From a virus, in IMG/VR virus record IMGVR_UViG_3300036790_000824, positions 1 to 38,269 of that record: a stretch of DNA of 38,269 bases; one strand, given 5' to 3'. A model generated the notes under the pieces. That model made no database searches, was not told where the DNA came from, and saw only the letters and a program-made list of their open reading frames with translations. Within the stretch, counting starts at the first letter, position 1, and each line of letters opens with the position of its first letter. Position numbers and translations under genes: made by a program. Positions 2,093 through 28,604 of this stretch are shown here, piece after piece.

Positions 2093-2329
2093 TTAGTGGA
2101 TGTGCAGCGCGAGTTCGGCGAGAAACTTCACCACTTCCCAGAGCGCGACCAGCGCGGCGCTCGCAATCCAGAGTTTCAGCTTTGCAGCGCGGAGTTTGTC
2201 TTTGAGATCTTCAATTTCTACTTGCTGGCGGTCGTTCGTTCCGGAAAGTTTCTTGATGCGGTCCCAGGCGGCGTTCAGATCGGCGAGCTGCTGGTCCGGG
2301 GTGCGGCGGTTGTAGTCGGAGAAGTTCAT
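2093..2329 (-). CDS. Coiled-coil protein with C-terminal membrane anchor
   Basis: 78 aa from the ATG at 2329, which overlaps the stop of the preceding tail gene as ATGA. The first 50 residues form a charged helical region likely to be a coiled coil (Q-Q-L-A-D-L-N-A-A-W-D-R-I-K-K). This is followed by a hydrophobic helix at about 55-76 near the C-terminus. The layout resembles phage tail-anchored proteins found beside holin/endolysin genes (spanin-like or pinholin-like accessory proteins), but no family is certain. A lysis role is inferred from its position directly before the endolysin. Confidence 0.6.
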   Translation of the reverse strand: MNFSDYNRRTPDQQLADLNAAWDRIKKLSGTNDRQQVEIEDLKDKLRAAKLKLWIASAALVALWEVVKFLAELALHIH

Positions 2330-3363
2330 GGCTCCCAGGCCACGCACGGAATTCCAAATTCGTCCGAAGGCAGCGCGGTGATGACTCCGAGAGTTGCGGG
2401 AAGCACACCAGAGACCGAAGCATTCGCGCTTAATCCAACTTTCACCGTCACGGTATTCAAGATCAGATGCTCATTGACTGGGAAGGAGACAAAGGACAAG
2501 CTATTTCCGGCTGCTTGCGTGGCAGCCATCCAATACGTACCGGGCTGGAGTGTCACCTGAGTAAACGAGGCACTGAAAGTTCCGTTGCGCTGCGTTTGCA
2601 CTCCGGTGTCCACCAACTTAGAACCGCTGCTGGAGTAAATCCCAAAAGCATAAGTCACCGAAGAGGTGCCGCTCGTAGTGGTCCATGTTGCGTGACCAAT
2701 AGTGATCGGCTGAGTAATCGAAAATTTCCTCACTAAGACGAGAGAGTTTGTGCCTTCTATTGCAGCCGTCGAGGAAGTCACATCGAACAGCCCTGGCCCG
2801 AACATAAAAGGCAGCGGAGCGCTCTGGGTGGCAGCCTGTACGTTAGTGTTTCCGGAGCCGTCGTCAGTCAAGATGATTGAACTGTCCGAGCTGTGCAGAT
2901 TTAATTTCGACTGGCTGCCATTGTTGGTGCCGTTGGTCTGCAAAAGTAAACTGCCCGCGCCGCCGGTCGCGGTGATGGTATAGGGTCCCAGGCAGGTCAC
3001 CGTGTTTTCAATGCAGACCGTGTAGTCGTAGGTTCCCGGATTCACCCAGAAGCCGAGATTGCCTTCCGCGTCTCCCGTGGCCTGGCAGTCGGAAGGTTGC
3101 GGATCGGGCGTATCCTGCGCTCCATTTGAGCAAGCCACTCCCAGCGATGTGTAAGTGGTCGCGTAGTTGGTGCAGGGCGTTCCGTTCGCGGGAGAGTTGC
3201 AGACCGCGATCACCGGCAAATTCGGCGCGATGTTCGCCTGCAAGAGCGGCGAGTATTGATTGCTGATGGAAGGGAAGGGAACCGGGACGCGCACTAGTTG
3301 CGCGAAGCAGAGCGGCGCAGGCAAGAGCACGAAGGAGAGCAAGTTGAGAATTAGTTTTTTCAT
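2326..3363 (-). CDS. Secreted tail/fibre-like protein with Sec signal peptide
   Basis: 345 aa. It starts with a textbook Sec signal peptide: M-K-K, a leucine-rich core, then P-L-C-F-A with cleavage before Q22. The mature part is a beta-rich, Ser/Thr/Gly-rich protein with several paired cysteines (residues 55-130, e.g. C-N-S-P-A-N-G-T-P-C). A P-G-T-Y-D-Y-T-V segment recalls carboxypeptidase-regulatory-like repeats found in tail proteins. The C-terminal half is typical phage fibre or receptor-binding beta structure. It lies downstream of two other genes whose products have the same kind of signal peptide. Cysteine pairs fit export to an oxidising compartment. A virion role is inferred from position and composition. 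Confidence 0.65.
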   Translation of the reverse strand: MKKLILNLLSFVLLPAPLCFAQLVRVPVPFPSISNQYSPLLQANIAPNLPVIAVCNSPANGTPCTNYATTYTSLGVACSNGAQDTPDPQPSDCQATGDAEGNLGFWVNPGTYDYTVCIENTVTCLGPYTITATGGAGSLLLQTNGTNNGSQSKLNLHSSDSSIILTDDGSGNTNVQAATQSAPLPFMFGPGLFDVTSSTAAIEGTNSLVLVRKFSITQPITIGHATWTTTSGTSSVTYAFGIYSSSGSKLVDTGVQTQRNGTFSASFTQVTLQPGTYWMAATQAAGNSLSFVSFPVNEHLILNTVTVKVGLSANASVSGVLPATLGVITALPSDEFGIPCVAWEP

Positions 3364-3367
3364 GAAA

Positions 3368-3706
3368 CTATTTCCAGGTGACGGTGATGTCCACGGTTCC
3401 CCCCGTGGTTACGCACACGCCGTTTTTCGTGGTGATATCGAAGACGAGAATTTCTCCGGCAGTTACATCGCTCGTGCCAGTGATCGCGATTCCGCCGGTG
3501 CAGTCAGGCTTGCTGGTGTCTACAACTACAATCGTTCCACTGCTCGATGAATTCACTACGATCGAATGCAGTTGCGTCAGTGGAGCGGAAGAAATCGGCG
3601 TATTGGTCGCGCTGGAGATGTGAGTGTAATGATTGTTGCCGACAATCTGCGCCCACACGGGCAGGCAAAGAAGACCAAAGACTAAAAGCAGTAAGAGTTT
3701 TTTCAT
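3368..3706 (-). CDS. Small secreted beta-rich protein with Sec signal peptide
   Basis: 112 aa. A signal peptide (M-K-K, six-residue Leu/Val core, P-V-W-A, cleavage before Q20) is followed by about 93 residues of predicted beta sandwich rich in Thr, Ser, Val and Ile. Two cysteines (near residues 70 and 98) could form a disulfide. The C-terminal half (I-L-V-F-D-I-T-T-K-N-G-V-C-V-T) resembles short fibre or decoration domains. It sits between the two larger secreted tail-like genes with gaps of 4 and 12 nt, so the three are surely co-transcribed. No specific family is recognised. Confidence 0.65.
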   Translation of the reverse strand: MKKLLLLLVFGLLCLPVWAQIVGNNHYTHISSATNTPISSAPLTQLHSIVVNSSSSGTIVVVDTSKPDCTGGIAITGTSDVTAGEILVFDITTKNGVCVTTGGTVDITVTWK

Positions 3707-3718
3707 GGAGTTCCTTTT

Positions 3719-5368
3719 CTAGTTTGAAGTGAGGATGGCGACGTTCAACCACGCACCCTGAGGGGAGAACTGCGAATTCTGTTTCACGGTGATGGCCTGC
3801 TCGGACTCCACCTTCCAGGTAAAGGTGATCGTGGCGCTGTTTGCATAGGTCGTCGGCGAATAACTTCCCGCCGTCATGTGGAATTGTGTCCCCCCCATAT
3901 CAACCGATCCAGTGGTATTCATGCCGCCCGTAGAGAAATTCGAGGTACCGTCATTGATCCACATCTCGATGCCGCCAGAATTCGATGTCTGCGCTCCCGC
4001 TTCATAACTCACAAATGCACGGCAGGGGCAGCCAGAGGAAGGCATGGTCACAGCCTTGGTAGCTACCGTGGTCACCGTTGTCGCGGAAACTGAAACATCG
4101 CTTCCCAGTGTGGTAATCGAACTGGCCTGCACCGCGATTCCCGCGCCGGAATTTGCTGCCGTGCAATATTCCTTACTGCTGGAATCAAGCGCGCACCAAC
4201 CTTTTCCGGCGACAAAATAACCTTCCTGCGTTGCGCTGGCGGGCGCGCTTCCCGGCGTTGCAACTTCCGGGCCGAGAGCGACTACCGTGGAAGATGTCGA
4301 GGTGAATACATCGCTCAATCCCAGCCTGGATGCGGTAATTGGAGCGTCGGCGGAATCATCGCCCAAGCGGAAATTAATGGCTGTGCCGTTGCGTTTCAGT
4401 CGCGGGAAACTTGCCGTCACCCCGCCGAGAAAAATATCTGGAACGGTTCCGGTGGTCTCCAATCCGCCCGCCGCGTTCAAGACAAAGCGGTCATTGGCAT
4501 CAATGGTGATGCCTTCATTCGATGCGTCGGTGGAATTCCGCCAGTTGATGATGTCCGCATTACAGAGCCGGAAGACACCCAGAGTTGCCGGACTCGCGCA
4601 AGCGGAAGCGAAAATGGAGGCATGAATGGTGCCTACATCAATTTCCGGCCCATCCCCGATCACGCAAGGGCCCACCGCCGTGGCGTCCGTGCCGTTGTAA
4701 ACAAATTCCTGCGTGGTCACCTGATTCGCGGTCGAGCCGATGGTGCAGCCGCCCACGGAATTCGCGGGCCAGGAGAAGGTATGCCCGCCGGAACCGTCCT
4801 GGGTGATCTGAAACCAGACGATGCTCGGCGGAGTGACTCCCACGAAAGTTAAAAGCTGCGCCGAAGCATCGCCAGTAAGGGTGATTTCAAAAAGCTGGTT
4901 CTGGGCCTGCACCGGGAATGCCGGCGTGGGTGAATAGGGAATGATCGTTGTTAAAGTGGTGCTTCCGCCGCCGATGCCGTTCACCGTGTAAAGCGTCTGT
5001 CCGGATGAGCAATGGAATCCGCCCGCTGATTTCACCCGGAAGGTGTAGGCCTGCCCTGCTTGTAGCCAGATATTCGCCGAGCCGCCCGCCGACAGGATCA
5101 CCGGATTCTGATTGAGTGTGGTTCCGGTGTAATCGGTGTAGGTCGAAAGCGGCGTGGTGGTGCCTACTTCGTAGGTGAATACGCAGCCAAAGGACAGCGG
5201 AGTGCCTGTCTGGTCGAAGAATTGGAGCTGCGGGACCGGAGAGAGCACTACGGCGACCTGTGCGGCGGCGGAGGCACAAAAGTAACCTGCGAGTAATGCC
5301 ACGAACAGGCTATGGGTAACAAGTCGTTTGTGCTCTACGAAAAATCGGCGGAAGAAATTAGAGTTCAT
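3719..5368 (-). CDS. Tail fibre/spike protein with an N-terminal signal peptide
   Basis: 549 aa from ATG 5368, which has AAGG 8 nt upstream. Residues 1-36 are a long signal peptide: a basic N-region with R-R, a hydrophobic core, then A-S-A-A-A and cleavage before Q. Right after it comes the widespread podovirus fibre N-terminal domain (about 45-120): L-Q-F-F-D-Q-T-G-T-P-L, then T-Y-E-V-G-T-T-T-P, a Y-T-D-Y-T-G-T segment, and N-P-V-I-L followed by I-W-L. In other phages this module usually starts the protein and attaches it to the tail. The C-terminal 150 residues are a beta-rich jelly-roll-like receptor-binding region ending N-V-A-I-L. An internal GTG could skip the signal peptide but has only a weak ribosome site. 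The start lies 2 bp from the divergent plus-strand gene. Confidence 0.7.
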   Translation of the reverse strand: MNSNFFRRFFVEHKRLVTHSLFVALLAGYFCASAAAQVAVVLSPVPQLQFFDQTGTPLSFGCVFTYEVGTTTPLSTYTDYTGTTLNQNPVILSAGGSANIWLQAGQAYTFRVKSAGGFHCSSGQTLYTVNGIGGGSTTLTTIIPYSPTPAFPVQAQNQLFEITLTGDASAQLLTFVGVTPPSIVWFQITQDGSGGHTFSWPANSVGGCTIGSTANQVTTQEFVYNGTDATAVGPCVIGDGPEIDVGTIHASIFASACASPATLGVFRLCNADIINWRNSTDASNEGITIDANDRFVLNAAGGLETTGTVPDIFLGGVTASFPRLKRNGTAINFRLGDDSADAPITASRLGLSDVFTSTSSTVVALGPEVATPGSAPASATQEGYFVAGKGWCALDSSSKEYCTAANSGAGIAVQASSITTLGSDVSVSATTVTTVATKAVTMPSSGCPCRAFVSYEAGAQTSNSGGIEMWINDGTSNFSTGGMNTTGSVDMGGTQFHMTAGSYSPTTYANSATITFTWKVESEQAITVKQNSQFSPQGAWLNVAILTSN

Positions 5369-5370
5369 AC

Positions 5371-5757
5371 ATGACCTTTCAAGTCCCAGCCCACTGGCGC
5401 GTCTTCGTCCTTGATGACACCCAAGAGCGCCTCGACTGGTTTCGAGAACGCCTGCCGCAAATGCGCTTCGCCAAGACGGCGGCGCAAGCAATCGAGATCC
5501 TCGCGGCGGAACAATTCGATCTGGTTTTTCTCGATCACGATTTGAGCTTCATGGACGCCGGATTCCCGGACCGGAACTTCGGCAACGGAAAAGAAGTAGC
5601 GCGGTTTTTAGCAATCCGAAAGTTCGCGGGGAAAATTGTGATTCACTCGCACGCCGATGCCGCCGCCACTATGCAAAAGATTCTTCCGCAAGCCGAGCGC
5701 TGCAGGTTCGACCAGTTAGAGATCGTCACTGCACACTCCCAAGCCGCCGGACAATAA
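5371..5757 (+). CDS. Cyclic-phosphate-processing receiver (cREC) domain protein
   Basis: 128 aa forming one receiver-like domain. The acidic pair D15-D16 ends the first strand (V-F-V-L-D-D), and the phosphoacceptor-like strand reads L-V-F-L-D55-H-D57. A G-N-G-K loop at 71-74 and an I-V-I-H-S-H strand (H92, H94) complete the conserved set. This D-D, D-H-D, GNGK and H-S-H pattern is that of the cREC family, predicted from comparative genomics to process cyclic phosphates, probably 2',3'-cyclic ends in RNA repair, rather than to act in two-component signalling. The gene is opposite to the late operon: its ATG is 2 bp from the divergent fibre start and its 3' end overlaps the convergent ejection gene by 32 bp. 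A counter-defence or RNA-repair role is inference. Confidence 0.7.
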   Translation: MTFQVPAHWRVFVLDDTQERLDWFRERLPQMRFAKTAAQAIEILAAEQFDLVFLDHDLSFMDAGFPDRNFGNGKEVARFLAIRKFAGKIVIHSHADAAATMQKILPQAERCRFDQLEIVTAHSQAAGQ

Positions 5758-7621
5758 CTGGAATTCTTTGAATCCCTGCTTTTTGCGCCGCGATCGCTCG
5801 GTGTCTTCCATCCACGGAAATGATGTTGTTATTCGCGTCGCGCGTCTCCATCACTGGTTCAACCGGTCGGCCCTTCTTGTAAGACTCCGCGAGTTTATTG
5901 ATGTAGTCCTGCGATTGCTGGGCATTCATGCCGCGCAAATTAGAGTCGGTATCCACGATGGATTTCTCATCCACGCCCCAGCGCTTCGTGAGATCAGCGG
6001 GAGCTGCGGTAGTGGAGACTCCGCCTTTCGGTATAGCCGCATCCAGCGCGCTTTTCGGCGGAACTACTGTTGCTTTTCCGTTCTGCGTGGTCAGTTGGCC
6101 GAGATCGGTGCGCGTGGTTTGCTTCCGCGCTTGAGCGTCCTCTAAAGACTTTTGCAGGATGTCGGTCAGATCGCCTTCCGGTGCCTCCGCAGCTTGCGGC
6201 GCTGCTTTTGTTTGCGCGACTGGCTGGGCTTGCGGAGTTTGTTTCGCTGGCGCCGGCACGGCTTGTTCTGCTCCGGGAGCAACATCATCGGGAGTCGCGG
6301 ACTGCGAAGCTACGCGCACGGCGCGGGGAGCACCATTTTTCGTGTTGATGACTCCCGGCGAATCTTTCAGAATTTGCCACGCTCGGCCTTTCGAGTTGGC
6401 CCCTTCAAAGGCTGCCACCTGGTCCGGAGTAATTCCCATGCGGCCATAGCGGGAGCCTTCCGGTGTGATGATTTCAAAATGCTCAGTTTCGGGATCGTAC
6501 TTGTAGCCTTGCATCGCGGAAGACTTTACCGAAGTGAAACCTTCCGGCAGGGAAGTGGCTGCTGTCGCGCCTTTCGCGGGAATTTGGTTCTTGAGTGGAA
6601 CATTCGGCTGTAACGGTTTTCCGCCCAGCGCGTCGTTTAGCTTTTGCTGGATGGCGGCGGGGGAAGTATCGGGCGCGGGCGCTTGTTTTGCCGCAATCAC
6701 ATCTGAGAATTCCGGTTTTCCGGTCGCGGGATCAATTTCAATGGTGCGCGGTTTAATCGTACTCAGCGCTTCCCCGGTTTGTGATTGAGGTTTCGCTCCG
6801 GTAGATTTTGCAGTGGAAAGTTCTGACCCTAATTTTGCGGGTGGCTCGGTTGGGGTTTCCTGTTCCGCCGCACTTGCTGCCGATTCGGTTTGTGGTGAAG
6901 TGCCGGGTTCGCGGAAATCTTCAGCGGCGGCAGCTTCCGGCGCAGCGGCAGTTTCGGCAACGGGAGCAGTATATTTCTCGGCAACTTTGGCGGCCCGTTG
7001 CGCGACTTTCAAACTGTGCGCAGCGCGGGGCGAAATAATTCCCACGACGTCAGGATCAACCGTCCTTACCGCTCCGGCAGTTTTATTGACAGCAGTTCTG
7101 GCCGCGTCTTTTATCGCTTCGGCAGCGGCAGGAATTTCCGGAGCCACTCTCGCCGCGCCTTCGGTTCCCAAGGCTGTAAGAGCTTGCCCCGCGCCCTCTC
7201 CCGCCGTCCGTCCGGCAACGCCGAGATAAGTTCCCGTAGGATCCGCGGATTGGTTGATGTCGTGAATCGCGCCGGGTACTTCCGTTGCTTGTTCGGCGGT
7301 CTGCGCAACCCCGTGCAACATGCGGTAAGACGCCAGCGCTGGCGGCCCACCGATGGCAAAAATGGCCGCTTCGCCTTTTGTCTGCGGAGGTTTACCTGCA
7401 TCCCATGCGCCTTGCACGGCCTGTTTAACTCCGCGTCCAATATTTTGCAAGCCTTGCTCGGTCGCGTGCGCGTAGGAGTCGAGGGGAATTTCCCGGTCGA
7501 GGATTCCCGACTGCGCGGCGGCTTGCGCGGGCGGAACTTTCTGATAGCTCGCGCCGGGATCAAACGCTGGAGGCGCGGCGGCCTGATAATCAGAATTCGG
7601 ATTGAATGCGGGTGTTGCCAT
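5726..7621 (-). CDS. Large ejection/polyvalent protein with KTSC and ParB-like domains
   Basis: 631 aa. The N-terminus repeats a short motif (P-A-F-N-P-N-S-D-Y-Q and P-A-F-D-P-G-A-S-Y-Q), followed by an Ala/Gly-rich helical region (60-220) typical of virion proteins injected with the DNA and then long Pro/Gln-rich linkers. Residues about 363-425 match the KTSC domain (S-S-A-M-Q-G-Y-K-Y-D-P, then a beta hairpin and A-N-S-K-G-R). Residues about 555-626 match a ParB/sulfiredoxin-like fold with D-G-R-H-R-A-I-A-A and R-I-P-V-I-V. Mixed enzymatic and linker domains of this type define phage polyvalent proteins delivered at infection. Its place after the gp7-like and another ejection gene equals that of gp16 in P22. 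The ATG abuts the upstream stop (TAAATG). Confidence 0.7.
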   Translation of the reverse strand: MATPAFNPNSDYQAAAPPAFDPGASYQKVPPAQAAAQSGILDREIPLDSYAHATEQGLQNIGRGVKQAVQGAWDAGKPPQTKGEAAIFAIGGPPALASYRMLHGVAQTAEQATEVPGAIHDINQSADPTGTYLGVAGRTAGEGAGQALTALGTEGAARVAPEIPAAAEAIKDAARTAVNKTAGAVRTVDPDVVGIISPRAAHSLKVAQRAAKVAEKYTAPVAETAAAPEAAAAEDFREPGTSPQTESAASAAEQETPTEPPAKLGSELSTAKSTGAKPQSQTGEALSTIKPRTIEIDPATGKPEFSDVIAAKQAPAPDTSPAAIQQKLNDALGGKPLQPNVPLKNQIPAKGATAATSLPEGFTSVKSSAMQGYKYDPETEHFEIITPEGSRYGRMGITPDQVAAFEGANSKGRAWQILKDSPGVINTKNGAPRAVRVASQSATPDDVAPGAEQAVPAPAKQTPQAQPVAQTKAAPQAAEAPEGDLTDILQKSLEDAQARKQTTRTDLGQLTTQNGKATVVPPKSALDAAIPKGGVSTTAAPADLTKRWGVDEKSIVDTDSNLRGMNAQQSQDYINKLAESYKKGRPVEPVMETRDANNNIISVDGRHRAIAAQKAGIQRIPVIVRRLGSVQ

Positions 7622-9325
7622 TTAGAGGGGATCGGCGGCGAGAACTTTTCCGTTTTGCACTTTCGTGGCGCGGTAGCGATGGCCGTTTTGCGTGATGACA
7701 TCGCCAACCTGGTGCGCGGCAGCCGCTCCACCATTCTGCTGATTCACTCGCGCCGCATAAGCCGGGTCGAGTTCCGCCCTTGATTGCCGGGCTTTCGCGG
7801 AGATTCCCGGCAGTGGTGCCTGGTATTCTTTGCTGGGCGCGGCATTCTGCCATTGCTGCTCGTAAGCATCCAGTTTGTCGCCCATGGATTGCGCTTGGGT
7901 GCGGATGGCGGCCTCGCGATTTCCGGGTAGCGTGCTGGTCAGCGTGTCTTTGATCGCATCAATCGCGGGAATTGTGGGATCGCCGTAAAACTTCGCGAGT
8001 TCCGCGGAAACTGTGGCAGCTTTGTTCTGGTATGCCGTCCATGCGGGCGTGTTGGGAATGTGGCTGGCTACGGTATTGAGGTCTAGCAGTTCCTTGAGAT
8101 GACCGAGCCCTGTGCCGCCGGAGTTGAGGGCTTTACTGGTCGGCCCGGAGGTGAAATCTTTGTAAGTGTTGACGTAAGACTGTGCTTTTGAAGAATCGAA
8201 GTCCGGGTACGCCCGCGTGACCGCATCGAGAATGGTTGGATTCCGCGAAAGTAAATAGTCGAGCCGATTAAGCGCCATGTGTCCGGTGCCGATTGCCTGT
8301 ACTGTGTCACGCAAAGCAGGCGGTAAGGTTTGGATGTAGGCATCACCTGAGAGATTGGGGTTTCCCGGAACTGGCGGGTTATTGATGGCATTCTGCCGCG
8401 CCGCGCCCTCCGCCGCCGCTACTGCGATCTTGCCTTGCTGCACCTGCGGGTTCGTGGCCAGGGCGATTCCTTTATTGAGTTCGAGTTGACTCTGATATGC
8501 CTGGTCAATGAATTTCTGCGCTCCCGGCACATCTCCCCGATTAAGCGCTGCATTCACTTGAACCTTCGTGAAGTTGTTCGGCCCAGCGGTTTGCGGATTC
8601 TTGGGCGGTAAAAGCGAATCAATCTGGGAGTCGAAGTCTCCCGGCTTTGAATTCTGGGAGAGCTTGTTGATAATTTCCTGATGCGCAGCGACAGCGTTTT
8701 CTTGTCGCGCCTTAGCTGCATTCTGATCCGCATCGCGCTGCTTCGCGGCATCGTTCACGATGGCGGAGTGCAACTGGATGGGGGCTAAGTGCTGCGCGAA
8801 GACATCGTCGCCGGGATAGTCGGGCGGTTCCTTGGAAACATCCACGCCCGACCCAGCCAGGCGCTGCAATCCTGCCTGGTACGTAGCATTCTTCCGATCG
8901 GCGGGCGCTTGCGAAACTTCATCATGCACGCCTTGAATCAAATCCGCCTGTTTCTGCTGTTGCGCAAACTGATCGTCGGAAAGTTTTAGAAGATTTTGCT
9001 TTTGGGTGACGAGTCCCTGCTGTGCTTTTATTGCAGCCTCTCCCGAACCTCCATTCGCGGTCACCATCTTGGGAATATCGGCGATGGTGTTTTTTGCGGG
9101 ATCAAATTGCGAGATAGTTTTAGTGAATGCGTCTTGGTCGTTCATCTGGCGCTGTTGAAGCTGCTGCGCTTGTTGAAGGCCCGCCGTCTGTTGCTGCTCT
9201 TCCGCCGTTTGCGCCTTCAGTTGTGCGACACGCGCATACTCCGCCAGCGCGTTCTGTGGCGCTTGCGCGATCTGAAGCCCATTTGGTGCGTTCGCTAATG
9301 AAGTGAGTCCGGGTAATGCGCCCAT
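7622..9325 (-). CDS. Putative DNA ejection (pilot) protein
   Basis: 567 aa, almost wholly helical and rich in Gln and Ala. Residues 25-75 form a strong coiled coil with Q-Q-L-Q-Q-R-Q type repeats. A central region has charged helices. Beyond residue 330 there is a more conserved-looking block (G-T-G-H-M-A-L-N-R-L-D-Y-L-L) of a type seen in other podovirus internal proteins. The C-terminus has a G-D-V-I-T-Q-N-G-H-R-Y-R-A-T-K-V-Q-N-G-K beta motif. Its position between the gp7-like and the gp16-position genes corresponds to P22 gp20. It probably leaves the capsid with the DNA and helps cross the envelope. The assignment rests on composition and gene order. Confidence 0.65.
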   Translation of the reverse strand: MGALPGLTSLANAPNGLQIAQAPQNALAEYARVAQLKAQTAEEQQQTAGLQQAQQLQQRQMNDQDAFTKTISQFDPAKNTIADIPKMVTANGGSGEAAIKAQQGLVTQKQNLLKLSDDQFAQQQKQADLIQGVHDEVSQAPADRKNATYQAGLQRLAGSGVDVSKEPPDYPGDDVFAQHLAPIQLHSAIVNDAAKQRDADQNAAKARQENAVAAHQEIINKLSQNSKPGDFDSQIDSLLPPKNPQTAGPNNFTKVQVNAALNRGDVPGAQKFIDQAYQSQLELNKGIALATNPQVQQGKIAVAAAEGAARQNAINNPPVPGNPNLSGDAYIQTLPPALRDTVQAIGTGHMALNRLDYLLSRNPTILDAVTRAYPDFDSSKAQSYVNTYKDFTSGPTSKALNSGGTGLGHLKELLDLNTVASHIPNTPAWTAYQNKAATVSAELAKFYGDPTIPAIDAIKDTLTSTLPGNREAAIRTQAQSMGDKLDAYEQQWQNAAPSKEYQAPLPGISAKARQSRAELDPAYAARVNQQNGGAAAAHQVGDVITQNGHRYRATKVQNGKVLAADPL

Positions 9326-9338
9326 AAAAGTGTCCTTT

Positions 9339-10070
9339 CTAGGCGAAGGCGAAGTTCCCCAACTGCTCTAGCGCGGAAGAACCGCCGGTCGTGTCGAGAT
9401 TGCCGAAGCCGTTACTCGCGGCCCCGAGCATGTTTCCGTAAGCCGCCGCCGAATTCAGATAACCAGAGGCTCTTGCCGCCGCCGCATTGTTGACCTGTGC
9501 GCCTTGCTGGTTTGCTGCGTTCAAATCGGTATTTGAAATATTGTTCGCCGCCGCCTGCCCTGCCTGCGCTACTTGCCCGGTTGAGGTGAGGCCGCTGTTC
9601 ACTCCACCTTGCAAGGTGTTGTAATTACTCATATACGTGTTCAGCGCATCGTTATAGGTGTTCTGGTATGCGGTCTGGGCGAGGTTCTGCCCATAATTCT
9701 GCAAGGCCGTTCCCGTGTTGCCGGTAAGCAGCGTTCCATTCGCCGCCGCGTTCTGGTCAATCGCCTGCGTCCCTTGCTGCAACTGGAACTGGTAACCCGG
9801 CGTGCTTTCGGCTTGCTGAAGCGTGGGCGCCTGGAAGCCCTGTTGCAGCAGGTTATTCAGCGAGTTCGCGGAGGTCGAGCCGAGCGTCTGGTAAGGCTGC
9901 TCCGCCGCCGTGGTGGTGGCGAGAACATTCTGCTGGTTCTGGTTGGCGTTGGTCTGGTTCTGCTGCGAGATAGCTTGCGCCTGCTGCGCGCCTTTTTCTT
10001 CCGCATTGGCCGCATTGTTCGACGCATTCGCGCCGAGAATTCCCCCCACCAGTGAACTAACGATGCTCAT
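9339..10070 (-). CDS. DNA transfer protein, P22 gp7-like
   Basis: 243 aa. The N-terminus is a hydrophobic Gly/Ala helix (S-L-V-G-G-I-L-G-A-N-A-S) followed by a Gln/Asn-rich coiled coil. The central block with S-T-P-G-Y-Q-F, Q-G-T-Q-A-I-D and N-Y-G-Q-N-L-A-Q-T-A-Y-Q-N-T-Y-N is the hallmark of gp7-type DNA transfer proteins in podoviruses and many soil phages. The product is expected inside the capsid and to be ejected to form part of the trans-envelope channel. The rest is Ala/Asn-rich low-complexity sequence. The gene directly precedes the two larger ejection genes, as in P22. Confidence 0.8.
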   Translation of the reverse strand: MSIVSSLVGGILGANASNNAANAEEKGAQQAQAISQQNQTNANQNQQNVLATTTAAEQPYQTLGSTSANSLNNLLQQGFQAPTLQQAESTPGYQFQLQQGTQAIDQNAAANGTLLTGNTGTALQNYGQNLAQTAYQNTYNDALNTYMSNYNTLQGGVNSGLTSTGQVAQAGQAAANNISNTDLNAANQQGAQVNNAAAARASGYLNSAAAYGNMLGAASNGFGNLDTTGGSSALEQLGNFAFA

Positions 10071-10088
10071 AAGTTTTTCCTGAAATGA

Positions 10089-10562
10089 TTACGGTTTGGA
10101 AATTCCTAGACAGACCTGATCTCGCAGGATGCCGCCGCGCAGGGTGCTTTTCTGATTGACGCCGTACTGCTCAAATCCCGCGCGCACCGCGAACTTGATG
10201 GCCCTGCGGTTTTCCTGCGCAATCTCTCCGGTGATACGCCGAGCAGTGGTTTCTTTCCACATACGTTCCAGCATTTCCTTGAAACTCGCAGCCGCTTTGT
10301 CGCCATACGCTCTCGGCAAAAAAGCGATGTGGGCTTTCCAGTGAACATTGTTTTCCGCCACGAAGATGCCGAAACCGCACGGCCCGTCATCGTCAGAAAC
10401 CGCGAAGCAGCGCAGATGCTCATTGTTGAGGTCGGGCACGCTCCATTCATCGGGCCGCGAAAAGAAGTCGTCGGCGATGAAAGGGAAAATCTTCGGGTCG
10501 CTGGCCAGTTTATAAACCAGCTTCGCATCACGGGTGCGGTACACGATTAATCCGTCTTCCAT
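10089..10562 (-). CDS. GNAT-family acetyltransferase
   Basis: 157 aa. The order of elements matches the GNAT fold: an N-terminal helix pair, a central beta sheet with C-G-F-G-I-F-V, then A-H-I-A-F-L-P-R, a helix containing G-D-K-A-A (acetyl-CoA pyrophosphate loop region) and a late strand/helix with E-N-R-R-A-I-K-F-A-V-R-A-G-F. The substrate is unknown. GNAT genes recur within or beside the ejection cluster of P22-like phages, so the protein may modify a virion or host protein. It lies 18 nt upstream of the gp7-like gene in the same operon. Confidence 0.75.
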   Translation of the reverse strand: MEDGLIVYRTRDAKLVYKLASDPKIFPFIADDFFSRPDEWSVPDLNNEHLRCFAVSDDDGPCGFGIFVAENNVHWKAHIAFLPRAYGDKAAASFKEMLERMWKETTARRITGEIAQENRRAIKFAVRAGFEQYGVNQKSTLRGGILRDQVCLGISKP

Positions 10563-10611
10563 TTAGCTTTTGGTTCGCGGCTGCCGAAGCGGTTTTAGCA
10601 GCGACCGGGCA

Positions 10612-10977
10612 TTAACTATCTGTCCTATAAAATCCCGACCCATAAATAATTCCTGCCGCTCTAGTCTCCGTGAAGGTAGGAAAAAAGCAGTTGCCTAAGT
10701 GTATTTGGAGTGAATTAGATAGTTCGTTATTGTTGTCACCCATGACGGCGACTGAATCAAAATTGGAAGTGAAGGGTAGAGAGCAAAACGTGCCTCCGCC
10801 GCCTGTTGCTGAAATCGTACTCCCTGGAACGCCATCTCCCGTGATAGTCAACTCAAATAATACGAGCCCGCCAATTTTCGTGTACTGACCTGCGAAAGTC
10901 CAAGTTCCCACTGTAGTGAATCCAGTAGGAATGGGAGTCCAGATTCCAGTGGTGTACGGAATTGGGTTGTTTATCAC
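10612..10977 (-). CDS. Small beta-rich tail fibre/receptor-binding protein
   Basis: 121 aa. The sequence has the pattern of C-terminal trimerising fibre domains: G-I-W-T-P-I-P, V-G-T-W-T-F-A-G-Q-Y, then G-G-L-V-L-F-E-L-T-I strands, an F-C-S-L-P-F strand and a closing G-S-G-F-Y. There is no signal peptide here, unlike the 2-5 kb fibre genes. It starts with GTG at 10977 overlapping the stop of the gene upstream (GTGA), so it is translationally coupled to the 415-aa protein, and the two may form one fibre. Confidence 0.6.
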   Translation of the reverse strand: MINNPIPYTTGIWTPIPTGFTTVGTWTFAGQYTKIGGLVLFELTITGDGVPGSTISATGGGGTFCSLPFTSNFDSVAVMGDNNNELSNSLQIHLGNCFFPTFTETRAAGIIYGSGFYRTDS

Positions 10978-12221
10978 GCAAATTCCTGGATGGCTAGATT
11001 AGAGGATGCTGCCGCAGCAATCGCAAACACCTGAGCCGTCGTGAAGGTGAATTCATCCATTACAAAAGTTCCGCCATTAGGATTTAGCGTGATACCTGAA
11101 TTTAGAACCGCCGCAGCACCAAGCCCGAGAGAAATTATTGCGTTGCTGGTATTGATTAAAACTAAACCTGTCCTGTCAGCGTCTGCAGCGACCGCCGAGC
11201 CTGAAGACGTTCCAACTGTCGCCGCCGAGGGGGAAGATGGAGTCAGGGCAGTCTTTGTAGAAACTAAGCCAGTCACATTAATTTTTCCGCCTGATACCGC
11301 TCCAGCAAGAGTGTCTGTGTCCGCCTTGATTGCCGCCAGATTGCCGCCTGTTTCCTGCGCTGCATTTGTCGGCAGCACTGAAGCGGTGACATCCACATCG
11401 AGTGTTGCTCCAAGCGCGGCAAGGATCGCCGCCAAGCCTGCAATCTCCGTGGTTTGGTTGGCCGCCGTGGCCGCGCCCGTGGCCAGCGTGCTCGATTGGA
11501 CGTTGACGCCAATATTGCCGTCCGCGTCGCAGGCAACGTCTTTTAATTTCGCATCGGCAGTATTGCGCGCCCCCATGAGCACGGGATTGATGGGAGCGCC
11601 GCCGTTGCCTGTATCCGCGTTTGTGTCTGGGGGAAAGAGTCCTTGAACCAGCGGATCGGCAAACACCGCAGTATCCCCGCCCTGCCCAATGGGAATCTTT
11701 CCGAGAGAAGGTGTGCCGGTAATTTTTATTCCGTTGATTTCAGTCGCATCAATCACCCCATCATCTACAGCGGAGAGAGACGCGCCAGTCCCCACCACCA
11801 TAGTTGCGCTGTCATTTTCTCCAGAAGTCAGTAAAGCGAAACTCGCCGAGCCGGGACCAGCGGAGCTACCTACGCCGGAATTCAACCAATTTGTGCCATC
11901 CGATTTGAAGCGCGCAGAGTCCCACTGCTTAGTGAGTAGCATCGCTCCGGTTTCCGCTCCGGTAATGGTCGCGGTGTTCGCATCGGCGGAAATCTTGACG
12001 TAAACAATTTCTTGGTTCTGATTCGATTGCCCGGTAGCGGAATTCAGTCCGGCCGGCGGCAATGCGAAGCTCTGATCTCCGCTGCTGGTGTCCACTTCTA
12101 CCAGCGGTAAAAGATTTTGCAGGGTGAAAAGCCACTGCCGGAGCGGAATAGCGAGAAAGCCTTTATCGTCCACGGCATTGGAGCGCGTGGGCGGCGGAAA
12201 GAGCATAGTTTGACTGGTCAT
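10974..12221 (-). CDS. Tail fibre-like structural protein
   Basis: 415 aa. The N-terminal 45 residues (L-F-P-P-P-T-R-S then I-P-L-R-Q-W-L-F-T-L-Q-N) look like a short virion-binding segment. The remainder is a Gly/Ala/Thr/Asn-rich chain with repeated I-T-G, A-T-L-D-V-D-V-T-A-S and N-Q-T-T-E-I-A-G-L-A motifs suggestive of beta-helical or coiled fibre structure. The C-terminal 90 residues (T-G-L-V-L-I-N-T-S-N-A-I-I-S-L-G) resemble a small receptor-binding or decoration fold seen in other phage proteins. It lies between the gp10-like tail hub and the ejection proteins, where P22 has gp26 and gp14. Identity with either is not supported. Confidence 0.6.
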   Translation of the reverse strand: MTSQTMLFPPPTRSNAVDDKGFLAIPLRQWLFTLQNLLPLVEVDTSSGDQSFALPPAGLNSATGQSNQNQEIVYVKISADANTATITGAETGAMLLTKQWDSARFKSDGTNWLNSGVGSSAGPGSASFALLTSGENDSATMVVGTGASLSAVDDGVIDATEINGIKITGTPSLGKIPIGQGGDTAVFADPLVQGLFPPDTNADTGNGGAPINPVLMGARNTADAKLKDVACDADGNIGVNVQSSTLATGAATAANQTTEIAGLAAILAALGATLDVDVTASVLPTNAAQETGGNLAAIKADTDTLAGAVSGGKINVTGLVSTKTALTPSSPSAATVGTSSGSAVAADADRTGLVLINTSNAIISLGLGAAAVLNSGITLNPNGGTFVMDEFTFTTAQVFAIAAAASSNLAIQEFA

Positions 12222-12236
12222 GCGAAAATAGAAAAC

Positions 12237-13871: not shown

Positions 13872-13970
13872 GGGTTAAGATTCGGTGTGAGGGACTTGCC
13901 TATCCGAGCCGTGCAGGGCATGGGCCTGCGCTAATCGCGTCTAATAACGCCTCCATGCGGCGAAGCGGCG

Positions 13971-14165
13971 CTACGGCAAGTCCTTCAACTGCTCCAACTC
14001 CGCCAACTTCGGAGTGACATACTTCGCGGCGAACTGCTCCGGCGCGAGCTTCAAATCTTCGCGTGATACTTCCACCACAACCCAAGAAGCCGCCAGCTTC
14101 GCGTCTTTCTTTTCCTTGGGATCGTGAATGCGAATGGTGAGGGTGAGAGTGTCTTTGTCGGGCAT
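13971..14165 (-). CDS. Small hypothetical protein (64 aa)
   Basis: A 64-aa soluble protein with a beta strand opening (T-L-T-L-T-I-R-I-H-D), a second strand (W-V-V-V-E-V) and a Lys/Glu-rich C-terminal helix. It is placed between the gp4-like and gp10-like genes, and about 100 bp of non-coding sequence follows it. The ATG at 14165 is 14 bp from the divergent Tat-signal gene. Codon pattern and coupling to the late operon support a real gene; no family is recognised. Confidence 0.6.
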   Translation of the reverse strand: MPDKDTLTLTIRIHDPKEKKDAKLAASWVVVEVSREDLKLAPEQFAAKYVTPKLAELEQLKDLP

Positions 14166-14179
14166 GTTAAATTGACCTT

Positions 14180-14566
14180 ATGGATCGGCGGAAATTCTTA
14201 TCACTCTTTGGCATCGGTGTCGCGGGCGTTGCGATCAAGCAGGCGATCCCCTTTGGCAGAGTGTGGAGCTTCCCCAAGAAGATTGTCATCCCACAGACGT
14301 TAACCGATCCTAATTACGTCCCCTTCTTCTACGGCGGCATTCGCGTCGGCAGCACGATCCGAATTCGCATACCCCAGCGTTTCATCATTAAGCACAGTCC
14401 GTTCGACTTGTCGCGGCCGTCGAGTTTTCGTTATGAGACATATTTAGGTGGCCCACTGCCGGAAGGAATAGATACAGAGTTCATGGTCACCCACGTTTAC
14501 TCGGGTCTCCCGCCCGGAACGCCGCCAGTCGCCCAATTGAAGTCCGCAATCGTCCCTGATTTCTGA
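14180..14566 (+). CDS. Tat-signal protein, unknown function
   Basis: 128 aa. It opens with a twin-arginine signal: D-R-R-K-F-L-S, then a hydrophobic Gly/Ala/Val stretch to about residue 20. A clear A-x-A cleavage site is lacking, so it may stay anchored. The mature part (30-128) has beta-rich segments (R-V-G-S-T-I-R-I-R-I-P-Q-R-F) and ends A-I-V-P-D-F. Proteins of this build are seen in other environmental phage genomes, and their role is unknown. The gene runs against the late operon; its start is 14 bp from a divergent gene and its last 70 bp overlap the convergent gp4-like gene. Confidence 0.6.
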   Translation: MDRRKFLSLFGIGVAGVAIKQAIPFGRVWSFPKKIVIPQTLTDPNYVPFFYGGIRVGSTIRIRIPQRFIIKHSPFDLSRPSSFRYETYLGGPLPEGIDTEFMVTHVYSGLPPGTPPVAQLKSAIVPDF

Positions 14567-15336
14567 CCCGCTCGTGGCATCCCTGAATCCTGCGTGCTGA
14601 TCCGGGGCGATTTGGGGTTATTGCCGAAGATCGCCACTCGCGCCTTACGTGCCGCGTCCGCCAGCGATGCCGAAACCGGACGATTCGATCCTGCGCAGAG
14701 CATCTCGGCGAGGGTGAGCATCAAGCCATTGCGGTAGCCTTGCGGAAGCGTTCCCGGCCCTCCGGGGCCGCCGATGGGGTCTTGAATATTCGTGAACTGC
14801 GCAACCGTCTGCCAGATTTGCAAGCGCACCTGATTGCCCGCATTCGGCACCGGCCAGAAATAAAGCGAGCCATCCGGGTTGGTGGGATCGTAAAAAAGAT
14901 CGGTTGGAACATTCGTCTGAATGTTTTTGACCTGATTATTGGCCCACCATTCTTTGTCGCGGAGGTTCATCGGCAAGTCCACCACGCCGACCGAATCACT
15001 TTCATTCAGTAATAGCGCGGCGGATTCGATTCGCACGGGACGCGGCGCACCGTTGGTTGAGAAGTTCGCCAGCACACTCGGCCCGATCAGATGCGGCGAA
15101 ACTCCCGGCACCAGTGTGTACACATTGAAGGCATAGGAATACACGAAGGCCCGCAGCGAGGCCCAGTAGTCCGTCAAATAATTAAATTTCCGGAATCCCC
15201 ACTGGGCTTCTTCGGGGTTATTGTTTACATCTTCGCCCGGCGCCCACGCGCCGATTTCAATGAACGCATCGGTGATGATGCTGCTCACCGTATAGGAAAG
15301 CGGCGGAGGCGGCGGAACTGAAGGGCCGGTGGGCAT
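14497..15336 (-). CDS. Head completion / tail accessory factor, P22 gp4-like
   Basis: 279 aa, longer than P22 gp4 (166 aa). After a Pro-rich leader (about 12 residues), the helical domain reads S-S-I-I-T-D-A-F-I-E-I-G-A, then E-E-A-Q-W-G-F-R-K-F-N-Y-L, typical of adaptor proteins that dock under the portal. Middle motifs K-E-W-W, V-P-T-D-L-F-Y-D-P-T-N-P-D-G and L-Y-F-W-P-V-P are shared with gp4-type proteins of many podoviruses. C-terminal 60 residues are likely disordered (S-G-M-P-R-A-G-Q-K-S). It should bind the portal ring and receive the gp10-like hub encoded downstream. Confidence 0.75.
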   Translation of the reverse strand: MPTGPSVPPPPPLSYTVSSIITDAFIEIGAWAPGEDVNNNPEEAQWGFRKFNYLTDYWASLRAFVYSYAFNVYTLVPGVSPHLIGPSVLANFSTNGAPRPVRIESAALLLNESDSVGVVDLPMNLRDKEWWANNQVKNIQTNVPTDLFYDPTNPDGSLYFWPVPNAGNQVRLQIWQTVAQFTNIQDPIGGPGGPGTLPQGYRNGLMLTLAEMLCAGSNRPVSASLADAARKARVAIFGNNPKSPRISTQDSGMPRAGQKSGTIADFNWATGGVPGGRPE

Positions 15337-15342
15337 GGGTTC

Positions 15343-15370
15343 GCTTTTCGATTAACGCTTTTCGATTAAC
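15343..15370. repeat. 14-bp perfect tandem duplication
   Basis: GCTTTTCGATTAAC occurs twice with no spacer (15343-15356 and 15357-15370). The second copy contains the TAA stop codon (15366-15368 on the minus strand) of the 177-aa gene, so it probably arose by recent slippage in the short intergenic gap before the gp4-like gene. Confidence 0.85.
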
Positions 15371-15899
15371 GACGACGGCGCGGGCGTGATTCCTGCTCTG
15401 CGTCCTGCGATTCCGGCGCAGCATCATTCGCGTCCGCAAATCCGGCCAGAGTTTCGTCGGTTTGCGCGGTTGCTGCGGCTTCAGCTTCACTTTGCTGCGC
15501 GAGCAACTCTTCATCTTCCAGATCATTCACGGTGATGGTTTCCGGGCGCGTGGCGGCGGCCATTTTCACGGCGGCGATGCCGTTTTTCACCTGCGAATAG
15601 TCATGGTTGAGTGATGGCTCTTTCTGAAAGCCCTTTTTCTCCGCGAGCTGCAACTGGCGGTCATCGTGAACCGTGACCACATGCCCCGTCTGGTGGTGAT
15701 AGACCATGCGCGGGAAGGGGTTATTCCGGTAGCGATTCACCGGAGGTTTCGAGAGATCAAACTCTTTTCCTTGTCCGCCGGAGATGAAGGAATCGAGCAA
15801 ATTTTTCAGCATGTTCTGCTGTTCCGGCGAAAGGTTCATATTGTTAAGGTTCTGCACTCCCGCCGATTTGTCCGCGGCGAAAGAATTTGTAGGTTGCAT
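15366..15899 (-). CDS. Hypothetical virion-associated protein with acidic/basic tail
   Basis: 177 aa from ATG 15899, supported by AAGGAG 6 nt upstream; the reading frame stays open further upstream but without a better ribosome site. A Met/Asn/Gln-rich helical N-terminus (N-L-S-P-E-Q-Q-N-M-L-K-N) leads to a compact region at about 55-100 with R-M-V-Y-H-H-Q-T-G-H-V and V-T-V-H-D-D, which looks like a small beta domain. The Ala/Glu-rich tail ends in a run of five Arg with one Pro. It lies between the coat-region genes and the gp4-like gene. No family is recognised. Confidence 0.6.
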   Translation of the reverse strand: MQPTNSFAADKSAGVQNLNNMNLSPEQQNMLKNLLDSFISGGQGKEFDLSKPPVNRYRNNPFPRMVYHHQTGHVVTVHDDRQLQLAEKKGFQKEPSLNHDYSQVKNGIAAVKMAAATRPETITVNDLEDEELLAQQSEAEAAATAQTDETLAGFADANDAAPESQDAEQESRPRRRR

Positions 15900-16044
15900 T
15901 TCAGTCTCCTTGACTACTTTCAATAATGTGTCGCGCACTCGTCCGTTGCGCGGAACTCCGAGTAAATCGAATTGCAGCGGATGCCGCTCGTTGCGCGTCT
16001 TCTGTGTGCTTTCGTTGAGTGGCACGGAAATCTTTTTGAAATCG

Positions 16045-16116
16045 GCGGGGCTTAATCAGGTTCGATCAAGCCCCGCGTAGCCCGTCATATAAGGGGTGTG
16101 AAAAGAGGACGACGGG
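16045..16116. promoter_or_regulatory. Two consecutive inverted repeats in a 228-bp gap
   Basis: A 9-bp perfect stem (GCGGGGCTT at 16045-16053 with AAGCCCCGC at 16068-16076) has a 14-nt loop. It is followed by a second inverted repeat (CCCGTC at 16081-16086, GACGGG at 16111-16116). Neither strand shows a T-run after the strong stem, so it is not a standard intrinsic terminator. It may be an attenuator or processing site that changes expression between the coat/secreted protein block and the tail genes. Confidence 0.5.
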
Positions 16117-16127
16117 CAAACAGCGTT

Positions 16128-17117
16128 CTAATACAACTCCCAGTACGGGCCGACAACCGTTGTGAATGTAGTCGGGACGGTAAAGGTTGAAGCAATCGTG
16201 CCGAACACCTGCCCAGTCACAGCTTTGGTCGTGGTGTTGTCTCCTTGCCCGGTGGTCAGCATTTGTAATTTATCCGTGGTTCCATTCGATTGCGCGCAGG
16301 CATAGTACTTGGCAGGCCCCACGACGTAATAGGGAGTCGTAAAGGCATATTTCTGCCAAGTGCTGGCACCTGACGTGGTGGCTCCGGCTGTGGCGGAATT
16401 GGCAATTAAGTTTCCCGTCCCGTCGTAAAGAATGACGAGATGTTTGTCGGTGCCTACGGTCGCACCGTTCAAAACACCTAAGCCGGTCACATACTTTGAA
16501 GCGCGAACATCGATTTCCGAGCAGTACATGGACGTAGCCGCCGCAATCGCAGTGTTCGTGCCGCAACTGGTGTACGCCGTACTGCAAGGTGTCACCTGGG
16601 CCGCAGTGAACGTATTCGCATTCAATGAACTCAGCGAAGACACCCACTGTCCGCCCACGCAATCGTTGATCGTGGTCGGCTGCCCCACAAGCCCAAAGGC
16701 AATCACCGGCAAATAGTTGTTATTGATGCCGATGCTTGTCCGGGAGCAGGAGCCGGTCGGTTGCACGGTCACCGAGAATGCGATGGCCGGGCCGACAAAG
16801 ACAACTGTGCCTGATGCGTGCGGGGCTGCGCTGCCTAAAGTCTGGTAGCCGCGCTGCACGGTCAAGGTAGTGCCGTTCACTGCATTCACGAATACCGCTT
16901 CGCCGGTCGAGCCGGAATCCGCGATATAGAGAACGGTTGAGCCCGCCGTGATTCCACTGGCCGAGGCGACAACAATGTGTGTCGTCGCGGAGCTGGAAAT
17001 CGCGGCGGAAAGCGTGGTGGTTGTGAGTAGCGTCTGTGCGTCGGCTGAAGGAGCCAGGACTGCCAGAGCCACGAAGGAAAACAGGGCAAAGAGTATTGAA
17101 ACGATTTTCTTTTTCAT
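16128..17117 (-). CDS. Secreted putative decoration/fibre protein with Sec signal peptide
   Basis: 329 aa from the ATG at 17117. It has a classical signal peptide (M-K-K-K, hydrophobic core to about residue 21, S-A-D-A, cleavage before Q28). The mature chain starts with Ser/Thr-rich strands and an I-T-A-G-S-T-V-L-Y-I, then T-L-T-V-Q-R-G-Y motif seen in phage structural proteins. Cysteines occur as C-S, C-G and C-S-T-A-Y-T-S-C pairs. The C-terminal 120 residues (V-T-G-L-G-V-L-N-G, then K-Y-Y-A-C-A-Q) look like a beta-sandwich carbohydrate or receptor-binding module. It lies immediately after the coat gene, a place where podoviruses usually keep head proteins, so an export signal is surprising. 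Confidence 0.65.
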   Translation of the reverse strand: MKKKIVSILFALFSFVALAVLAPSADAQTLLTTTTLSAAISSSATTHIVVASASGITAGSTVLYIADSGSTGEAVFVNAVNGTTLTVQRGYQTLGSAAPHASGTVVFVGPAIAFSVTVQPTGSCSRTSIGINNNYLPVIAFGLVGQPTTINDCVGGQWVSSLSSLNANTFTAAQVTPCSTAYTSCGTNTAIAAATSMYCSEIDVRASKYVTGLGVLNGATVGTDKHLVILYDGTGNLIANSATAGATTSGASTWQKYAFTTPYYVVGPAKYYACAQSNGTTDKLQMLTTGQGDNTTTKAVTGQVFGTIASTFTVPTTFTTVVGPYWELY

Positions 17118-28601: not shown

Positions 28602-28604
28602 CAC

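What the first reader, a model, noticed from the sequence alone, without database searches (positions are those of the whole stretch)
2326..17117. Virion-type proteins carrying Sec signal peptides
Four proteins encoded in the tail and coat regions (2326-3363, 3368-3706, 3719-5368, 16128-17117) begin with full Sec signal peptides. Tailed phages assemble in the cytoplasm, so exporting fibre-like proteins would remove them from assembly. One has the podovirus fibre attachment domain directly after the signal. All four signals end in A then Q, as does the signal of the 28605 protein, so a common selection or host preference (N-terminal pyroglutamate) is suggested. Possible meanings: fibres mounted after lysis or in the periplasm, surface display for superinfection exclusion, or capture of host exported-protein leaders.
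Basis: partly seen in the sequence, partly recalled or inferred. Interest (0 to 1): 0.85.

Follow-up and report, generated by a model that had tools for sequence, protein, structure and literature searches.

The report
Sec-exported tailspikes in uncultured podoviruses
A whole group of short-tailed bacterial viruses puts export signals on the spikes that recognise the host and on a coat-associated protein. Those parts are probably made outside the cell's interior and attached to the particle later, a route not described for tailed phages in anything I could find.

Summary
The window is a P22-like podovirus. Each of 2326-3363, 3368-3706, 3719-5368 and 16128-17117 starts with a signal-peptidase-I-type leader ending A|Q.

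In relatives the leader is retained in 40/40 (16128), 23/23 (3719) and 16/17 (2326) homologues. About 3% of homologues of 18 other families score positive. Q follows the cleavage site in all 65 nonredundant homologues checked.

The mature 3719 protein is a tailspike head-binding domain plus a TNF-like lectin domain. Signal-less homologues (Xanthomonas phage PBR31, many uncultured phages) begin with Met where the mature protein begins with Q. All 31 signal-bearing homologues carry a Cys pair that all 45 signal-less ones lack. Cysteine counts are even in 64 of 69 signal-family proteins, but 85 even to 119 odd elsewhere. This points to folding in an oxidising compartment.

Most likely these proteins are Sec-exported, disulfide-bonded, and dock on particles after holin triggering or lysis. 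Export is well supported; virion location and docking are inferred. The signal/Cys association may be a single evolutionary event, and the host is unresolved. The A|Q ending is the commoner export style in one acidobacterium (60% against 17% in E. coli).

The parts
3719..5368 (-). Tailspike/receptor-binding protein, 549 aa: signal peptide 1-36, mature from Q37; N-terminal head-binding domain (about mature 1-98) with conserved Cys26/Cys84 of the mature protein; C-terminal TNF-like lectin-type domain
   Evidence: leader; 23/23 relatives with signal; 7eeq head-binding domain E 0.0016; PBR31 tailspike homology; TNF-like fold; Cys/signal association
5261..5368 (-). Signal-peptide coding part of the tailspike gene (36 codons, ends GCA|CAG = A|Q)
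   Evidence: conserved [AGSC]Q in 17/17 relatives
3368..3706 (-). Small signal-bearing protein of the fibre module, 112 aa, mature from Q20, two Cys in the mature part; no homologue found
2326..3363 (-). Second fibre-type protein, 345 aa: signal 1-21, mature from Q22; conserved Cys-rich N-terminal domain
   Evidence: 16/17 relatives with signal; 12/12 Q at +1; Cys pattern
16128..17117 (-). Coat-adjacent structural protein, 329 aa: signal 1-27, mature from Q28; fold like a capsid-associated chain of cyanophage A4; C-terminal half interchangeable (DUF4082-like in one subfamily, another domain in the other)
   Evidence: 40/40 plus 34/34 relatives with signal; AF2 pLDDT 81.8; 9jwb_Z E 1.2e-5; alignment
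17185..18426 (-). P22-type coat protein (no signal; control and phylogenetic marker)
   Evidence: PF11651 E 3.1e-27; tree
5726..10070 (-). Three ejection-protein-type genes (5726, 7622, 9339) without signals, directly upstream of the signal-bearing fibre module
   Evidence: 9339: phrog_598 DNA ejection E 2.3e-25; order as in PBR31; signal counts
10974..12221 (-). Signal-less protein next to the head-closure gene, at the position where PBR31 encodes its annotated tailspike adaptor; putative docking partner by position only
   Evidence: 0/27 relatives with signal; no BLAST similarity to PBR31 orf027
1619..2086 (-). Glucosaminidase-type endolysin, no signal, directly after the fibre module
   Evidence: PF01832 E 2.3e-18, phrog_3513 E 1.2e-24

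Best explanation
The window is a P22-like podovirus whose assembly is split between two compartments. The DNA-filled head, tail hub and ejection proteins are built in the cytoplasm from signal-less proteins. The tailspike/receptor-binding proteins (3719, 2326 and probably 3368) and the coat-adjacent protein (16128) are exported by Sec and cut by signal peptidase I. They expose an N-terminal glutamine (likely cyclised to pyroglutamate) and fold with disulfide bonds in the periplasm. When the holin fires or the cell lyses, released particles meet the periplasmic pool. The head-binding domains then dock, so the particle gains its receptor-binding parts last and outside the cytoplasm. Shown here by sequence: conserved leaders, the cleavage context, the head-binding and lectin domains, and the cysteine pattern. 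Inferred: actual export, disulfide formation, presence on the virion, and docking after lysis.
For: (1) Leaders are retained in 79/80 homologues of three families and absent from the other late families; leader sequences diverge (pair identity about 0.3) while charge, hydrophobic core and [AGS]Q persist. (2) The leader is added exactly at the N-terminus of a known virion-binding domain: Q-VAVVLSPVPQLQFFD corresponds to M-AVQIAPLPVMRFYD in PBR31, and the register to the 7eeq head-binding domain is preserved (PMC10975493). (3) Of 76 homologues of that domain, 31 have a signal and all carry Cys26/Cys84; 45 have none and lack both. (4) Cys parity 64 even: 5 odd and 2.08 Cys/100 aa in the signal families, against 85:119 and 0.64 in the others. 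Strictly conserved cysteines are visible in the 16128 alignment. (5) The large fibre-type genes after the ejection genes are signal-bearing in all 18 contigs examined (window and 17 relatives). The two apparent exceptions proved to be wrong start choices. So no signal-less receptor-binding protein was found there. (6) The fold of 3719's C-terminus is a TNF-like lectin, fitting receptor binding; 16128 resembles a capsid-associated chain. (7) From general knowledge, P22 tailspikes are the last part added and can be added to tailless particles in vitro, and the related phage L's Dec decoration protein binds finished capsids. These are the two part types exported here. My literature search did not retrieve a paper for this.
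Against: No protein, virion or infection data. The signal/Cys association may reflect one evolutionary event: 3 changes on an ill-resolved domain tree, 1 on supported branches. The tail-docking partner was not identified by sequence. The S3719 AlphaFold model is poor in its middle and at its first residues (mean pLDDT 58), and no disulfide distance could be measured. Head-binding domains retained on exported proteins could also serve another purpose. The codon-position test of the leaders had too few alignable pairs to be informative.
Confidence: 0.6

Rival explanations
1. The proteins are exported but are not virion parts. They are secreted or surface-bound receptor-binding proteins that coat the infected cell's receptors or act at a distance (superinfection exclusion, decoys, public-good binding proteins).
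For: Export would remove them from cytoplasmic assembly; other signal proteins without virion features are encoded at 28314 and 28605; the TNF-like lectin domain could act without a virion.
Against: The N-terminal head-binding domain is kept, with its structural register, which a decoy would not need. No signal-less receptor-binding protein was found in the fibre module of the 18 contigs examined, so the virion would have none there. The 16128 family sits beside the coat gene and resembles a capsid chain.
Confidence: 0.2
2. Dual use: part of each protein escapes export (inefficient signal or alternative start) and is assembled in the cytoplasm, while the rest is displayed or released.
For: Possible start codons lie near the mature N-terminus in many homologues (17/21, 13/15, 16/35), and the leaders are not equally strong.
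Against: None of those internal starts has a Shine-Dalgarno (0/71), although only 24/71 of the signal starts do. Signal-bearing homologues all carry the cysteine pair, pointing to the oxidised form as the selected one.
Confidence: 0.1
3. The leaders are not used by Sec for release. They act as membrane anchors or assembly guides and are removed (or not) during particle assembly at the inner face of the membrane.
For: No direct proof of cleavage; the long n-regions of many 3719 leaders are unusual.
Against: Textbook n/h/c regions with small residues at -1 and -3 and an invariant +1 Q; the cysteine parity would be unexplained in the cytoplasm.
Confidence: 0.06
4. Ordinary or artefactual: chance hydrophobic N-termini or mis-called starts.
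For: No SignalP run was possible; the scoring rule is my own.
Against: About 3% false positives in 428 control homologues against 79/80 in the three families, and 31/31 against 0/45 in the cysteine association.
Confidence: 0.02

Closest known systems
Xanthomonas phage PBR31 tailspike (orf034, MT119766; PMC10975493)
   Same: P22-type coat and portal, same gene order (coat - small gene - tail tubular genes - adaptor - ejection proteins - tailspike), homologous N-terminal virion-binding domain (49% identity)
   Different: PBR31 tailspike starts with Met where the window protein's mature part starts with Q: no signal peptide, no Cys26/Cys84 pair. PBR31's next gene, orf035 'putative structural protein', does begin with a signal-like leader
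Salmonella phage P22 tailspike gp9 and cyanophage tailspike head-binding domains (7eeq; 9vyg Pan3)
   Same: Receptor-binding spike mounted through an N-terminal head-binding domain
   Different: No signals called on P22 structural genes; the receptor-binding part here is TNF-like rather than a beta-helix
Cyanophage A4 capsid chain (9jwb_Z)
   Same: Best structural match of the 16128 protein (E 1.2e-5, TM 0.52 by target)
   Different: 16128 family has a signal peptide in every member found and conserved cysteines; only a partial structural match
Burkholderia phage BcepC6B gp19 / PBR31 orf035 ('tail fiber' / 'putative structural protein')
   Same: Isolated podoviruses with a fibre-annotated gene that begins with a signal-like leader next to the spike gene
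   Different: Cleavage context ...G|A not A|Q; unrelated sequence; their main spikes carry no signal; the signal is not discussed for orf035 in PMC10975493
SAR endolysins and other phage exported lysis proteins (e.g. JG068 gp47, PMC3765740)
   Same: Tailed-phage proteins that use the host Sec system
   Different: SAR signals are uncleaved anchors on lysis enzymes; here the leaders look cleavable and sit on fibre/capsid-type proteins

Membership tests
P22-like podovirus | P22-type coat and portal | tested here: met
   PF11651 E 3.1e-27, PF16510 E 4.5e-88
P22-like podovirus | Order portal-scaffold-coat-head closure-ejection proteins-tailspike | tested here: met
   window gene order and homologues in PBR31
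Podoviral tailspike / receptor-binding protein | N-terminal head-binding domain | tested here: met
   7eeq E 0.0016; PBR31 tailspike homology
Podoviral tailspike / receptor-binding protein | Receptor-binding C-terminal domain | tested here: inconclusive
   TNF-like lectin fold matches E 1.8e-5 to 1e-4; binding itself not tested
Podoviral tailspike / receptor-binding protein | Cytoplasmic synthesis without signal peptide | tested here: not met
   cleavable-type leader in 23/23 relatives
Podoviral tailspike / receptor-binding protein | Present in the virion | not testable with these tools
   no proteomics
Sec / signal peptidase I substrate | Positive n-region, hydrophobic h-region, small residues at -3/-1 | tested here: met
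Sec / signal peptidase I substrate | Not a lipoprotein (no Cys at +1) | tested here: met
   +1 is Q in 65/65 nonredundant relatives
Sec / signal peptidase I substrate | Exported and cleaved in vivo | not testable with these tools
   needs experiment; cysteine parity is indirect support
Capsid decoration protein (for 16128) | Fold like a capsid-associated protein | tested here: inconclusive
   9jwb_Z E 1.2e-5 over 164 columns, TM by target 0.52
Capsid decoration protein (for 16128) | Bound to capsid in the virion | not testable with these tools
   no proteomics or cryo-EM
SAR endolysin-type exported phage proteins | Uncleaved signal-anchor on a lytic enzyme | tested here: not met
   leaders have cleavage sites; no lytic domain found

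The most novel reading that the evidence does not exclude
A deep clade of tailed phages builds its particles in two compartments. Heads and tail hubs are made in the cytoplasm; receptor-binding spikes and a capsid-decorating protein are exported, disulfide-bonded and pyroglutamate-capped, and added outside the cytoplasm. The head-binding domain has acquired, in evolution, a disulfide suited to folding there.
Probability: 0.55. Interest if true: 0.9.

Novelty: new variant of a known kind. Interest (0 to 1): 0.78.

Why it matters
Tailed-phage assembly is taught as entirely cytoplasmic. Here the virion-binding domain itself carries a signal peptide and an export-linked cysteine pair, fixed across a large uncultured clade. 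That makes extracytoplasmic completion of tailed-phage particles directly testable. It also predicts oxidised receptor-binding proteins, a possible way to delay receptor binding until after lysis, and a simple sequence signature (cleavable signal on a head-binding domain) for finding more such phages. It warns annotation pipelines against trimming these leaders or filing such genes as host secreted proteins.

Tried and rejected
Host by coat search in GTDB genomes: one hit, a 29 kb contig binned in a 'Betaproteobacteria' MAG (L049). Tetranucleotide composition did not settle it: the contig resembles that MAG (0.90), but the window itself is ambiguous. A sample of 274 genomes of the MAG's class gave only distant coats otherwise. 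Prophage flanks were looked for in the 62 kb record G303: phage-like throughout by my reading, no clear host genes. Acidobacteriota genomes could not be used as a search centre.

Leader codon-position test: too few alignable pairs.

Independent origins of the signal/Cys pair: not established.

Homology of 10974 to the PBR31 tailspike adaptor: no BLAST support.

Relatives of 16128 and 2326 in isolated phages: none.

Literature: eight full-text searches (one further query failed on a short term) found no report of signal peptides on tailed-phage virion receptor-binding proteins, and a ninth for P22 tailspike addition in vitro was unhelpful. Absence in this library is not proof.

Two apparent signal-less fibres (G009 829 aa, G028 928 aa) were rejected as upstream mis-starts: the real starts give MNLRRCIYVLFLSLALSPPVWA|Q and MKTFRFFSAAGLCLLVFCSLPIFA|Q. 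L222, scored signal-less by the rule, reads MKSFTLIILLLSAAFMSA|Q.
Full report
WHAT THE WINDOW IS. The window is an IMG/VR virus record. Coat (PF11651, E 3e-27), portal (PF16510, E 4e-88), head closure (phrog_578), DNA-ejection protein (phrog_598), scaffold (phrog_8865) and a glucosaminidase endolysin identify a P22-like podovirus. Late genes run on the minus strand from the terminase (24994-26514) down to the fibre and lysis genes.

THE OBSERVATION. No SignalP was available. I wrote a rule based on n-, h- and c-region features that accepts 6 of 7 classic E. coli leaders and measured its error on homologues of the other window genes. It is positive in 13 of 428 control homologues, against 40/40 (16128 family), 23/23 (3719) and 16/17 (2326) in IMG/VR relatives. 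The single miss shows an obvious leader with no start codon close enough for the rule. An extended search for the 16128 family gave 34/34. No signal-less member of that family was found.

THE +1 GLUTAMINE. [AGSC]Q at the cleavage site is present in 65/65 nonredundant homologues of the three families and 33/34 of the extended 16128 set. In 250 kb of a Granulicella tundricola plasmid (Acidobacteriota) 21 of 35 signal genes have [AGS]Q in the c-region. The figure is 5/29 in E. coli and 7/24 in the Betaproteobacteria MAG. The motif therefore looks like a host export style that the phage follows more strictly than the host DNA sampled. N-terminal pyroglutamate is a plausible consequence, not shown.

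THE SIGNAL IS BOLTED ONTO A VIRION-BINDING DOMAIN. The mature 3719 family profile matches the solved 'Tailspike head-binding domain' 7eeq (E 0.0016, residues 28-80 against 26-79) and the Pan3 tail spikes. Xanthomonas phage PBR31's tailspike is 49% identical over this domain and begins MAVQIAPLPVMRFYD exactly where the window's mature protein begins QVAVVLSPVPQLQFFD. The PBR31 authors describe that part as apparently the virion-binding domain (PMC10975493). In an AlphaFold model (low confidence in the middle) the C-terminus has a TNF-like fold as in BC2L-C and PLTL lectins and Pgp3. The protein thus reads as a receptor-binding spike.

CYSTEINES. Among 76 nonredundant homologues of the head-binding domain, 30 scored as signal-bearing and all have Cys at mature positions 26 and 84. 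Forty-five signal-less homologues have neither. The one apparent exception, L222, has a leader my rule missed. So signal and cysteine pair coincide 31/31 against 0/45. Over whole mature proteins the three signal families have 64 even and 5 odd cysteine counts (2.08 Cys per 100 aa). All other window families have 85 even, 119 odd, 156 with none (0.64 per 100 aa). The 16128 family keeps four cysteines in almost every member although its C-terminal half is swapped between two dissimilar domains. This is what is expected of proteins that fold outside the cytoplasm. Caveat: on a tree of the domain with cysteines masked, the label changes three times on the best tree and once on supported branches. 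The association may therefore be one event.

DISTRIBUTION. On a coat tree, 32 signal-bearing phages form one side of a fully supported branch. The signal-less homologues lie on the other side with PBR31, BA3, PAE2 and other contigs. Two signal-bearing records (G305, G309) fall among the signal-less group on long branches, so a second origin or exchange is possible but not shown. In 18 contigs (the window and 17 relatives), the large fibre-type genes that follow the ejection genes carry signals, including proteins of 647-965 aa without homologues in the window, and a 421 aa protein with tail-fibre PHROG similarity. Two apparent exceptions were wrong start choices. I therefore found no signal-less receptor-binding protein in this module. 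A contig of another virion type in the same MAG (G029 C16) carries related signal-bearing fibres, suggesting that such modules move between phages of one host.

THE 16128 PROTEIN. It lies directly after the coat gene in the relatives. Its model (pLDDT 81.8) matches chain Z of the cyanophage A4 capsid (E 1.2e-5, TM by target 0.52) and, over one domain, tailspike structures. Close structural neighbours in the viral library are unnamed uncultured phage proteins and minor tail or collagen-repeat proteins. A capsid-decoration role is likely but not proven.

MECHANISM. Most likely, spikes and the decoration-type protein are exported through Sec, processed, oxidised and stored in the periplasm. They dock on particles when holin and endolysin open the cell. 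From general knowledge, P22 spikes can be added to tailless particles in vitro and Dec-type proteins bind finished capsids, so the two part types exported here are the ones that can be added last. Shown: leaders, domains, cysteines, conservation. Inferred: export in vivo, disulfides, virion location, docking order. Possible benefits are oxidative folding and preventing spikes from binding receptor or each other before release.

RIVALS. Secreted decoy or exclusion proteins (0.2), dual localisation (0.1), an uncleaved anchor (0.06) and artefact (0.02). The strongest point against decoys is the preserved head-binding domain, with no alternative receptor-binding gene found in the fibre module. The strongest point against dual use is the cysteine pair and the absence of internal starts with a Shine-Dalgarno (0 of 71; 24 of 71 signal starts have one).

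KNOWN OR NEW. I found no report of Sec-exported virion receptor-binding proteins in tailed phages in the open full-text library. Precedents that should be examined are PBR31 orf035 and BcepC6B gp19, fibre-annotated or structural-annotated genes with signal-like leaders beside the spike gene. I file the phage as P22-like and the spike as a new variant of podoviral tailspikes; the 'no signal, cytoplasmic' feature of that kind is tested and not met.

LIMITS. No SignalP, no proteomics, host unresolved. The E-value of the 7eeq match is modest, though the PBR31 homology supports it independently. Leader coding constraint could not be tested by codon position.

Noticed in passing
window 28314-28604 (-) and 28605-29036 (-): Two adjacent signal-bearing small proteins outside the late module; the first has a weak HNH-endonuclease match (phrog_6050, E 0.008) and six cysteines in all. 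A possible exported nuclease or exclusion factor.
   Followed up: partly
L160 16675-17484 (PBR31 orf035); L154 3001-4074 (BcepC6B gp19): Fibre- or structural-annotated genes of isolated podoviruses with a signal-like leader (MKKLIALFSLFCTSAFG|A, MKKLIAILLAVPALALG|A). The trait may exist in another form in cultured phages.
   Followed up: partly
G029 contigs C94 (L102/L124) and C16 (L103/L125): Two different phage types binned in one 'Betaproteobacteria' MAG share signal-bearing fibre genes, suggesting module exchange between unrelated virions of one host.
   Followed up: partly
window 16128-17117 and alignment A1: The 16128 family keeps its N-terminal domain but swaps the C-terminal half between a DUF4082-like domain and another domain, each with its own conserved cysteines.
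   Followed up: partly
window 21956-22043 (+): tRNA-Ser (GCT) gene on the strand opposite to the late genes, between the portal gene and 22045-22719.
   Followed up: no
window 10089-10562 (-): Protein conserved in 25 relatives within the tail module; PBR31 has an annotated acetyltransferase near the same position. Role unknown.
   Followed up: no
window 5726-7621 (-): Ejection-type protein whose C-terminal half has weak ParB-N and KTSC matches (E about 0.001-0.002).
   Followed up: no
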